Source: Desulfurivibrio alkaliphilus AHT 2 (GTDB lineage Bacteria; Desulfobacterota; Desulfobulbia; Desulfobulbales; Desulfurivibrionaceae). Taken from it: a DNA stretch of 64,000 bases. This document shows, piece by piece, positions 45,835 to 50,030 of the stretch; within the stretch, counting starts at the first letter, position 1, and each line of letters begins with the position of its first letter. A program made the position numbers and the translations under genes. The notes under the pieces were generated by a model. That model had not been told where the DNA came from. It did not search any database and was given only the letters and a program-made list of their open reading frames with translations. The DNA is taken from positions 310,001 through 374,000 of the forward strand of contig NC_014216.1 in the NCBI RefSeq assembly GCF_000092205.1, in the 5' to 3' direction.

Positions 45835-45848
45835 TGCCATTGACCGCC
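45835..45848 (+). repeat. 14-bp direct repeat, left copy
   Basis: TGCCATTGACCGCC, identical to 50031-50044. It overlaps the proposed TTG start of the C39-like gene. The two copies bracket the whole four-gene cassette. Confidence 0.75.
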
Positions 45849-46547
45849 TCCTTCACCGCCCTTCCGATCGAGCCGCAGCCGGATACCACGACCTGCGGGC
45901 CGACTTGCCTGCATGCGCTGTATCGTCATTACGGGCGCGAGATGGCGTTGGCGCAGATCATCGACGAGATCCAGCGCCTGGACCATGGTGGGACGCTGGA
46001 CGTATTCCTGGCCAACCACGCGCTGGCGCGGGGCTTTTCGGCCATCGTTTACACCTACAACCTGAAAGTGTTCGACCCGACCTGGTTTGTTGGTCGCAAG
46101 ACCGATCTGGCGGCCAAGCTGCGGGCCCAGGCTCGAGCCAAGCGCCGACCCAAGCTGCAGGTTGCCACCGACGGCTATCTTAGTTACCTGGCCGGCGGTG
46201 GTGAGATTCGCTATGCCGACCTCAACCGGGCCTTGCTGCGGCGCCTGCTGAGCAATGGTGAACCGGTACTGACCGGCCTGAGTGCGACCTACCTGTACCG
46301 GTCAGCGCGCGAGTGGGGCCCCGACGACATCGACGATGACGTGCGTGGCGAGCCGGTTGGGCATTTCGTGCTGCTGGCCGGTTATGATCGTGCTACCCGT
46401 GAGGTGTTGGTGGCCGATCCCATGCACGATAACCCCCAGGGCAGCCAGAACTACCGGGTGCACGTTGATCGGGTGATCGGCGCGATCCTGCTTGGTGCGC
46501 TGACCTACGACGCCAACTTGCTGGTGCTCAGGCCATGCGCCAACTGA
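45840..46547 (+). CDS. C39-like cysteine peptidase of the amidoligase cassette
   Basis: 235 residues from TTG 45840 (GAGGG seven bases upstream); the open frame reaches back into the tRNA, so a non-ATG start is needed. Papain-like C39 features: Gln13, Cys19 in DTTTCGPTCLHALYRHYG, His in EPVGHFVLLAGYD and Asp in VLVADPMHD. No membrane segments, ABC domains or bacteriocin-type exporter are attached, unlike peptidase-containing transporters. It probably cleaves or transfers a peptide made by the ligases downstream. Overlaps the next gene by 13 bp. Confidence 0.8.
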   Translation: MTASFTALPIEPQPDTTTCGPTCLHALYRHYGREMALAQIIDEIQRLDHGGTLDVFLANHALARGFSAIVYTYNLKVFDPTWFVGRKTDLAAKLRAQARAKRRPKLQVATDGYLSYLAGGGEIRYADLNRALLRRLLSNGEPVLTGLSATYLYRSAREWGPDDIDDDVRGEPVGHFVLLAGYDRATREVLVADPMHDNPQGSQNYRVHVDRVIGAILLGALTYDANLLVLRPCAN

Positions 46548-48108: not shown

Positions 48109-49356
48109 ATGCCGACTCTTGAACCCGTGACACCATTGCTGAAGCTGCGTGCCTTTGCCGGCTACGGCATCGAGCTGGAGTACATGATCGTCGATCACCG
48201 GACGCTGGCCGTCCGGCCGCTGGCCGATCGGCTGCTGATCGGGCCGGACGGTGCGGTGGTCAACGAGGTTGATCACGGTGAGCTAGCCTGGTCAAACGAG
48301 CTGGTTCAGCATGTGCTCGAGCTCAAGACCAACGGGCCGGCCGAGTCGCTGGTCGGCCTGGGCGCGCGCTTTCATCGCGACCTGGTTGAGATCAACGGCA
48401 AGCTGGCAGCCCTGGGCGCCGGCCTGCTGCCGACCGCCATGCATCCGCTGTTTGATCCGGCCCGCGAGACCCATCTTTGGCCTTATGGCCAGAACGAGAT
48501 CTACGAGGCCTATGATCGGATCTTCGGCTGTCGCGGCCACGGTTGGTCGAATCTGCAGAGCATGCATATCAACCTGCCGTTCTACGATGAAGAAGAGTTT
48601 CGCCGTCTGCACGCGGCGATCCGTATCGTGCTGCCGCTGATTCCGGCGCTGGCTGCCGCCTCGCCGCTGGAGCAGGGCCGTCGTTCGGCTTGGCTGGACA
48701 ATCGGCTCAGGTATTACCGCGACAATCAGAAGGCAATTCCTGAAATTTCGGGCCTGGTCGTGCCCGAGCCGGTGACCGGGATTGAGGACTATCACCGGCA
48801 AATTCTCGAGCCGATGTACGCGGCGATCCGGCCGCATGACCCGAACGAGGTTCTGAGTGATGAATGGCTCAACTCGCGCGGGGCAATTGCCCGCTTCGAG
48901 CGGCAGACCATCGAGATTCGGGTGATCGACCTGCAGGAGTGCCCGGCCGCCGACCTGGCGATTGCCGAGGCGGTGGTCGAGCTGGTCCGCGCCCTGTACA
49001 AGGAGCGCCTGGCCGGCTTCGCGGCCCAGCAGGCGCTGTCTACCGAGGCCCTGGCCGAGCAGATGTGGCGCTGCGGCGAGCAGGGCAGCCAGGCGGAGAT
49101 TGGGTCTGAAGCATTGCTGGCGTTGTTTGGTTGCGATCGGCCCCTGACGGCGGCTGAACTCTGGCGCAAGCTGCTCGAGGACGGTTTGGCCGTCAGCCCG
49201 ACTGCGGCCGGAATGCTCGAACGAATAATTGTCCGCGGCAGCCTGGCCGAGGCGATCGTGCGGCGGTTGGGTTCTGTGCCGAGCGAGGAGGAAATTCGCC
49301 TCTGTTACCGGGAGTTAGGCTTATGTCTGGCCGAAAACCGCCTGTTTCTGTCCTGA
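48109..49356 (+). CDS. GCS2-family carboxylate-amine ligase
   Basis: 415 residues. The glutamine-synthetase-like glutamate-cysteine ligase 2 fold is shown by YGIELEYMIVDHRT at the start, NLQSMHINLPFYDEEEFRRLHAAIR, LDNRLRYYRDNQ and RFERQTIEIRVIDLQECPAADLAIAEAVV. Relatives form gamma-glutamyl amides or join amines to carboxylates. As the second ligase of the cassette it could extend the RimK product. Overlaps the next gene by 34 bp. Confidence 0.87.
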   Translation: MPTLEPVTPLLKLRAFAGYGIELEYMIVDHRTLAVRPLADRLLIGPDGAVVNEVDHGELAWSNELVQHVLELKTNGPAESLVGLGARFHRDLVEINGKLAALGAGLLPTAMHPLFDPARETHLWPYGQNEIYEAYDRIFGCRGHGWSNLQSMHINLPFYDEEEFRRLHAAIRIVLPLIPALAAASPLEQGRRSAWLDNRLRYYRDNQKAIPEISGLVVPEPVTGIEDYHRQILEPMYAAIRPHDPNEVLSDEWLNSRGAIARFERQTIEIRVIDLQECPAADLAIAEAVVELVRALYKERLAGFAAQQALSTEALAEQMWRCGEQGSQAEIGSEALLALFGCDRPLTAAELWRKLLEDGLAVSPTAAGMLERIIVRGSLAEAIVRRLGSVPSEEEIRLCYRELGLCLAENRLFLS

Positions 49357-50030
49357 TCACGACCGAGCATGCCAGTGCCGCCGTGCCAGAGCGCTGGCGC
49401 CCCTTGTTTGCCGGCCACGAGGCGATCCTGCAGACTCACCGGGCCTGGGACCCTGGCTCCCGCGAACTGGGCCGGGCCCTGGCCGAGGTCCTGGATGCGC
49501 CGTTGCTCGAAGGGCAGGTGACCCGGCTGCTGGTCGATCTCAACCGTTCCGCCGGCCACCCCCGGTTGTTCAGCGAATTCAGCCGGGCTTTACCGGCATC
49601 CCAGCGCCATGTGCTGATGGCCGAATATTGGCAGCCACACTGGCAGGCCTACGCCGAAACGGTGACGCGTCTGCCGGGACCGGTGCTGCATCTGGCCTGT
49701 CACAGCTTCACGCCGGTGCTGGACGGGGTGGTACGAACGGCCGACATCGGCCTGCTTTACGATCCGGCCCGGCCCGGCGAACGTCGCTGGTGCCAGGGTC
49801 TGCGCTCGGCCATCGCCGAACGATTGCCGGGTTTAAGGGTGCGCATGAATTACCCGTACCGTGGCGTATCCAACGGGCTCGGCCAGCAGCATCGTCGCCG
49901 GTTCCGTGCTGCGCAACTGATCACCATGGAGCTTGAGGTCAATACCGCGCTGGTCGATGGCCCGGGCTGGGACCGGATCATGACCGGGTTGGTTGCGGCG
50001 GTAAGCCGGGCAGCAGGCAGTCGGTGCTGA
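49323..50030 (+). CDS. N-formylglutamate amidohydrolase-like enzyme
   Basis: 235 residues. Metal-site pattern includes TTEHASAAVP, HRAWDPGSRELGRALAEVL and a later HLACHSFTPVLDG with YPYRGVSNGLGQQHRRRF. The family hydrolyses N-formylglutamate and related N-acyl acidic amino acids, like a zinc carboxypeptidase. No histidine-degradation genes are near, so it more likely trims the product or a protecting group of the cassette. Confidence 0.85.
   Translation: MSGRKPPVSVLITTEHASAAVPERWRPLFAGHEAILQTHRAWDPGSRELGRALAEVLDAPLLEGQVTRLLVDLNRSAGHPRLFSEFSRALPASQRHVLMAEYWQPHWQAYAETVTRLPGPVLHLACHSFTPVLDGVVRTADIGLLYDPARPGERRWCQGLRSAIAERLPGLRVRMNYPYRGVSNGLGQQHRRRFRAAQLITMELEVNTALVDGPGWDRIMTGLVAAVSRAAGSRC

What the first reader, a model, noticed from the sequence alone, without database searches (positions are those of the whole stretch)
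45840..50030. tRNA-linked four-gene amide-ligase cassette (C39 peptidase, RimK-ATP-grasp, GCS2, N-formylglutamate amidohydrolase)
Two different ligase types (ATP-grasp and GS-like) are tightly coupled with a cysteine peptidase and an N-acyl-glutamate hydrolase; consecutive overlaps of 13 and 34 bp occur, but the middle pair is 110 bp apart. Genes for known uses of these families (ribosomal S6 modification, glutathione synthesis, histidine breakdown) are not nearby. Comparative work on amidoligases (from memory, Iyer and colleagues, 2009) predicted such mixed sets to make uncharacterised peptides or protein tags. A two-ligase, two-hydrolase unit suggests a made-and-trimmed glutamyl-type conjugate.
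Basis: partly seen in the sequence, partly recalled or inferred. Interest (0 to 1): 0.85.

Follow-up and report, generated by a model that had tools for sequence, protein, structure and literature searches.

The report
Conserved, horizontally acquired peptide-ligase operon
A soda-lake sulfur bacterium carries a four-gene operon, acquired from an unrelated bacterium and kept in the same gene order across many phyla, whose enzymes are predicted to build, process and trim a small glutamate-containing peptide or peptide tag that nobody has yet identified.

Summary
The four genes are real. C39 peptidase, RLAN-RimK ATP-grasp, GCS2 and FGase lie in one tightly packed operon. The order C39-RLAN-GCS2 recurs in 79 of 96 related loci from many phyla, 52 of them with FGase, and the expected catalytic residues are invariant in 36-81 aligned relatives.

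The tRNA link is incidental. The same-genus species G218 has tadA, tRNA-Ser and the HD gene with no cassette between them. The window's cassette is 89% identical (RLAN) to one in Wenzhouxiangella, a gammaproteobacterium, so it was acquired horizontally.

Wider sampling shows two RLAN system types. Type A pairs RLAN with GCS2 (usually C39, often FGase). Type B pairs it with an acetyltransferase, often fused to another C39 domain. No locus has both partners, and FGase was seen only in type A. The ATP-grasp core has no residues that switch between types.

I infer that the core ATP-grasp makes one amide bond, that GCS2 or GNAT adds an alternative cap, that C39 processes the product, and that FGase removes the GCS2-type cap. 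The product is unknown. The family was already described computationally.

The parts
45731..45819 (+). tRNA-Ser (CGA); insertion site of the cassette, not a functional part
   Evidence: ARAGORN; the same tRNA with no cassette behind it in the same-genus genome G218
45835..45848 (.). copy 1 of an exact 14-bp direct repeat TGCCATTGACCGCC, overlapping the C39 start codon
   Evidence: family D17
45840..46547 (+). C39-like (papain-like) cysteine peptidase or transpeptidase, soluble, 235 aa, TTG start
   Evidence: Pfam Peptidase_C39_2 48 bits; Q13, C19, H175 and D193 conserved in all rows with a letter there; model pLDDT 95; nearest folds PCAT1/ComA peptidase domains, phytochelatin synthase, PeiR
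46535..47998 (+). RLAN domain (residues 25-172) fused to a RimK/LysX-like ATP-grasp ligase; overlaps C39 by 13 bp
   Evidence: RLAN 161 bits, RimK 35.7 bits; K283, K322, D435, E447 and N449 invariant in 81 sequences; model matches RimK, LysX and ArgX
48109..49356 (+). GCS2 (glutamate-cysteine-ligase-type) carboxylate-amine ligase
   Evidence: Pfam GCS2 99 bits over the whole model; E22, E24, E64, E71, R257, E269 and R271 invariant wherever covered in 45 sequences
49323..50030 (+). FGase (N-formylglutamate-amidohydrolase family) hydrolase; overlaps GCS2 by 34 bp
   Evidence: Pfam FGase 77 bits; E15, H16, H123 and H127 invariant in 36 sequences; best solved relative Atu2144, 2odf
50031..50044 (.). 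copy 2 of the 14-bp direct repeat, directly after the FGase stop codon; the pair brackets the cassette
   Evidence: family D17; spacing 4196 bp

Best explanation
The cassette is a self-contained cytosolic system for making and processing a non-ribosomal peptide (or short peptide conjugate), acquired horizontally as a unit and inserted just behind tRNA-Ser. Shown by tools: one conserved operon with catalytic residues intact; a constant RLAN-ATP-grasp core that pairs with either GCS2 or a GNAT; FGase seen only with GCS2. Inferred: the RLAN-ATP-grasp activates a carboxylate as an acyl phosphate and joins it to an amino acid amine, as RimK and LysX do. GCS2 makes a second amide bond, most likely from the gamma-carboxylate of glutamate to the amine end of the same molecule, taking the place of the acetyl cap that the GNAT gives in the sister systems. 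C39 forms an acyl-enzyme on its cysteine and either cleaves or transpeptidates the product, as phytochelatin synthase does with glutathione. FGase hydrolyses the glutamyl cap, for turnover. The chemically closest picture is a glutathione-to-phytochelatin style pathway with unknown building blocks.
For: Operon order conserved in 79 of 96 loci, no other recurrent partner. Ligase and peptidase catalytic residues conserved. No conserved small ORF that could be a precursor or carrier, which favours a non-ribosomal product. In unbiased phylum samples RLAN pairs with GCS2 (14 of 17 Thermodesulfobacteriota; 13 of 20 loci read in Bacteroidota) or with GNAT (39 of 40 loci read in Pseudomonadota), never both. 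52 positions of RLAN-ATP-grasp are conserved across both types and none switches, so the core chemistry should be shared. FGase in none of 46 GNAT-type loci. The C39 model resembles the acyl-enzyme of phytochelatin synthase with glutathione. Linked ligases often do successive ligations (PMC4431377).
Against: No substrate or product is known. The C39 model is equally close to double-glycine leader peptidases, which act on ribosomal peptides. The GNAT of the sister systems scores just under the RimI cut-off (84.9 of 86.4 bits), and RimI and RimK both act on proteins, so the target may be a protein. The RLAN domain has no relative of known structure by profile search. C39 is missing from 18 of 46 GNAT-type loci, so it is not essential to the core reaction.
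Confidence: 0.5

Rival explanations
1. Peptide tagging or protein end-modification: the RLAN-ATP-grasp adds glutamate-like residues to a target protein that the RLAN domain recognises, GCS2 (or GNAT) modifies the other end or the tag, and C39 and FGase remove it, in the manner of RimK and its eraser RimB.
For: RimK and LysX/ArgX, the nearest folds, act on protein C-termini (fold match; role from general knowledge). The GNAT of the sister systems is RimI-like. A writer-eraser pair of RimK and the protease RimB is known (PMC12239564). RLAN is an extra conserved domain of about 150 aa that could bind a protein.
Against: Far below the curated cut-offs for RimK (64 of 143 bits) and for the S6 ligase (28 of 331). 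No target-protein gene recurs beside the cassette. GCS2 enzymes mostly act on free amino acids (general knowledge).
Confidence: 0.3
2. A ribosomal-peptide (RiPP or graspetide-like) system: the C39 protease cuts a leader peptide after an ATP-grasp has modified the core.
For: C39 sequence and model resemble PCAT1 and ComA leader peptidase domains. The graspetide ligase PsnB is among the ATP-grasp fold matches.
Against: No conserved small ORF within 1.5 kb in 96 loci. No transporter recurs beside the cassette. GCS2 and FGase have no role in known graspetide systems (general knowledge).
Confidence: 0.06
3. Osmolyte variant of the best explanation: the product is a capped dipeptide used as a compatible solute, comparable to N-acetylglutaminylglutamine amide, acquired in a soda lake.
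For: The AHT2 genome paper finds no ectoine or betaine synthesis genes although the organism is haloalkaliphilic (PMC5016858). The nearest cassette is in a Wenzhouxiangella. GNAT plus ATP-grasp is the make-up of the known dipeptide-osmolyte enzyme (from memory; weak TIGR03103 matches to the GNAT part only).
Against: The same cassette occurs in organisms not known as halophiles, such as Thiobacillus and Nitrosomonas. The window's ATP-grasp does not match TIGR03103 at E 0.01.
Confidence: 0.1

Closest known systems
Pfam RLAN (PF14401) + RimK + GCS2 + FGase + peptidase gene neighbourhoods (Iyer, Abhiman, Burroughs and Aravind 2009, Mol BioSyst; from memory, not readable here)
   Same: Same domains in the same kind of neighbourhood; RLAN is a named Pfam family that fits the window protein at 161 bits.
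   Different: As far as I recall the function was only predicted. The A/B partner exchange, the FGase-with-GCS2 restriction and the empty site were worked out here; I cannot say how much of the partner exchange the paper already noted.
RimK / RimB (ribosomal protein S6 glutamylation)
   Same: ATP-grasp of the RimK/LysX fold with an operon-encoded hydrolase as possible eraser.
   Different: Far below RimK cut-offs, extra RLAN domain, second ligase GCS2, no rpsF or RimB-type protease in the conserved neighbourhood.
Glutathione synthesis (GshA + GshB) with phytochelatin synthase
   Same: A GCS-type ligase, an ATP-grasp ligase and a papain-fold enzyme; the C39 model is similar to phytochelatin synthase.
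   Different: No member passes a GshA, EgtA or GshB equivalog cut-off; substrates unknown.
Closthioamide (CtaD ATP-grasp, CtaG peptidyl transferase) and butirosin (BtrJ, BtrH)
   Same: ATP-grasp with a C39-fold enzyme in non-ribosomal amide synthesis (CtaG structure 9qvj; pathway roles in PMC6772006; butirosin from memory).
   Different: Those pathways use carrier proteins; no carrier gene recurs here.

Membership tests
RLAN-RimK / GCS2 amidoligase neighbourhood | RLAN domain fused to a RimK-like ATP-grasp | tested here: met
   161 and 35.7 bits, both over cut-off
RLAN-RimK / GCS2 amidoligase neighbourhood | Co-directional link with GCS2 and C39 conserved across phyla | tested here: met
   79 of 96 loci; 14 of 17 RLAN genomes in an unbiased phylum sample have RLAN-GCS2, 13 of them with C39
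RLAN-RimK / GCS2 amidoligase neighbourhood | Catalytic residues of both ligases intact | tested here: met
RimK S6 glutamate ligase | Curated RimK subfamily / equivalog score | tested here: not met
   TIGR00768 64.4 of 143.4; PRK10446 28.4 of 331
Glutathione synthesis (GshA/EgtA/GshB) | Equivalog score of the ligases | tested here: not met
   gshA_cyano 19.4 of 249; EgtA 18.9 of 371; glut_syn 23.2 of 299
HutG N-formylglutamate deformylase | NCBIfam HutG-type match | tested here: not met
   no NCBIfam hit at E 0.01; nearest solved structure is Atu2144
Graspetide / RiPP | Conserved precursor peptide beside the ligase | tested here: not met
   no conserved small ORF beyond near-identical relatives
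N-acetylglutaminylglutamine synthetase | TIGR03103 match | tested here: not met
   absent for the window proteins at E 0.01; under 24 of 569 bits for GNAT-type relatives
Phytochelatin-synthase-like transpeptidase | Transpeptidation of gamma-glutamyl peptides | not testable with these tools
   fold similarity only; needs an enzyme assay

The most novel reading that the evidence does not exclude
RLAN-ATP-grasp systems make an unrecognised and widespread bacterial peptide metabolite (RLAN in 72 of 398 Pseudomonadota, 35 of 296 Bacteroidota and 17 of 395 Thermodesulfobacteriota genomes sampled). It is capped at one end by interchangeable modules, acetyl (GNAT) or glutamyl (GCS2 with FGase as eraser), and remodelled by a papain-fold transpeptidase.
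Probability: 0.35. Interest if true: 0.8.

Novelty: new member of a known kind. Interest (0 to 1): 0.52.

Why it matters
The operon has kept its order across many phyla and moves between them, yet it has no known product. A core ligase with two alternative partner enzymes is a concrete, testable handle on what the product is. If it is a small peptide, a metabolite made by roughly one in six Pseudomonadota species sampled has been missed; if it is a protein tag, it is a new peptide-tagging pathway.

Tried and rejected
tRNA as part of the system: rejected, since no other cassette sits beside a tRNA and the same-genus G218 has the empty site. Functional link to the second amidoligase pair 1.7 kb away (PF12224 + C26, 51749-53570): not supported. 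In G218 the PF12224 gene lies beside the HD gene, where there is no cassette, and PF12224 is absent from 12 other cassette genomes. Precursor or carrier peptide: none conserved. Dispersed repeat explaining the 110-bp gap: only one copy in the genome. FGase as core enzyme: rejected, 7 of 9 genomes without it in the operon lack it altogether; in Blastopirellula and Nitrosomonas communis it lies elsewhere. RLAN fold by profile against PDB: nothing significant. Literature: the 2009 paper is not in the library; searches for an experimental study of this set found none.

Full report
What is there. Four co-directional genes at 45840-50030 encode a soluble C39-like cysteine enzyme, an RLAN domain fused to a RimK-like ATP-grasp, a GCS2 ligase and an FGase hydrolase; each exceeds its Pfam cut-off. 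The genome is one 3,097,763-bp contig, the size published for Desulfurivibrio alkaliphilus AHT2 (PMC5016858).

Conservation. In an even sample of 395 genomes of the same phylum, 17 have RLAN. Fourteen of these have RLAN-GCS2 in the same order, 13 of them with C39 detected (the fourteenth, G228, has a frame-disrupted RLAN), and three have a GNAT with RLAN instead. A scan of GTDB genomes gave 80 further loci in Pseudomonadota, Planctomycetota, Bacteroidota, Verrucomicrobiota, Balneolota, Nitrospirota and others. Over these 96 loci, 52 are C39-RLAN-GCS2-FGase and 27 are C39-RLAN-GCS2. The 80 were picked by likeness to the window's RLAN, so this count leans towards its own type; the phylum samples do not. 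No other neighbour recurs widely. Adjacent genes usually overlap or abut: C39-RLAN and RLAN-GCS2 median -4, GCS2-FGase median -14.

Catalytic competence. Expected catalytic or ligand residues are invariant: C39 Q13, C19, H175, D193; ATP-grasp K283, K322, D435, E447, N449; GCS2 E22, E24, E64, E71, R257, E269, R271; FGase E15, H16, H123, H127 (residue roles by analogy with the families, from general knowledge).

Structure. The C39 model (pLDDT 95) matches PCAT1 and ComA leader peptidase domains, phytochelatin synthase Alr0975 (including its glutathione acyl-enzyme), the endoisopeptidase PeiR and CtaG. The RLAN-ATP-grasp model (pLDDT 90) matches RimK, LysX/ArgX and D-Ala ligases. The RLAN domain has no significant profile match in the PDB.

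Two system types. In Pseudomonadota 72 of 398 genomes have RLAN, and 39 of 40 loci read are GNAT-type. In Bacteroidota 35 of 296 have RLAN; of 20 loci read, 13 are GCS2-type and 7 GNAT-type. No locus has both. In 28 of 46 GNAT-type loci the GNAT is fused to a C39 domain (Pfam DUF3335), homologous to the cassette's C39 (hhalign 97%). FGase occurs in none of the 46. The RLAN tree separates the types with two changes, against 28 in shuffled labels; 52 RLAN-ATP-grasp positions are conserved in both types and none switches. Inference: the core reaction is common, GCS2 and GNAT are alternative capping enzymes, and FGase acts on what GCS2 adds.

FGase. Of 23 cassette genomes searched, those with FGase have one copy of this subfamily, except Pontibacter ruber with a second copy; G228 shows one gene in two pieces. 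Of nine genomes whose cassette lacks it, two have it elsewhere and seven not at all. It is an accessory.

Arrival. The window's RLAN is 89% identical to that of a Wenzhouxiangella and groups with Wenzhouxiangellaceae and Lysobacteraceae with support 99, while the cassette of the same-genus species G218 groups with Desulfuromonadales and a Krumholzibacteriia sequence, inside a mostly delta-proteobacterial clade. DNA similarity to Wenzhouxiangella covers only the cassette, 45864-48017 (80%) and 48109-49979 (71%). G218 has tadA, tRNA-Ser and the HD gene with no cassette between them. In the window the terminator-like hairpin that follows the tRNA in G218 is gone, and no sigma-70-like promoter was found by the consensus scan, so transcription from the tRNA promoter is possible but untested. 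A 14-bp exact repeat brackets the cassette, which may mark the insertion.

Mechanism and standing. I favour a cytosolic non-ribosomal peptide pathway with two successive ligations, thiol-enzyme processing and glutamyl removal. Linked ligases of this kind often do successive ligations (PMC4431377). A protein-tag reading is the main rival, because RimK and the RimI-like GNAT act on proteins. The attribution of the neighbourhood to Iyer and colleagues is from memory, as the paper could not be read.

Noticed in passing
window 51749-53570 (-): A second, unrelated amidoligase pair (PF12224 Amidoligase_2 with a C26 gamma-glutamyl hydrolase) overlaps by 35 bp; the PF12224 gene is at the matching place in G218, so it predates the cassette insertion.
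   Followed up: partly
window 45835-45848 and 50031-50044: Exact 14-bp direct repeat TGCCATTGACCGCC at both borders of the cassette, with no integrase seen among the neighbouring genes annotated.
   Followed up: partly
window 47999-48108: The RLAN-GCS2 gap is single-copy in the genome and about 60 bp longer than in Wenzhouxiangella L037.
   Followed up: partly
L033 and L034: GNAT-type RLAN genes lie between a FabH-like gene and a homocitrate-synthase-like gene followed by a NifA-like regulator and a nitrogenase-like NifD gene.
   Followed up: no
L079, L084, L093, L094, L099, L112: In most of the Pontibacter loci the cassette lies downstream of arginine biosynthesis genes (argD, argF, argB, argH) on the same strand.
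   Followed up: no
L267 (Pseudomonas aeruginosa plasmid pZYPA1927) 3908-5497: A solo RLAN-RimK gene with neither GNAT, GCS2 nor C39 beside it, between an SDR gene and an Orn/Lys/Arg-decarboxylase-like gene, near a glutamate/aspartate ABC transporter.
   Followed up: partly
L266 (Legionella adelaidensis NZ_LR134436.1) 41-3232: RimK-GCS2-FGase order on a 9-kb plasmid record, with RLAN cut at the start of the record.
   Followed up: partly
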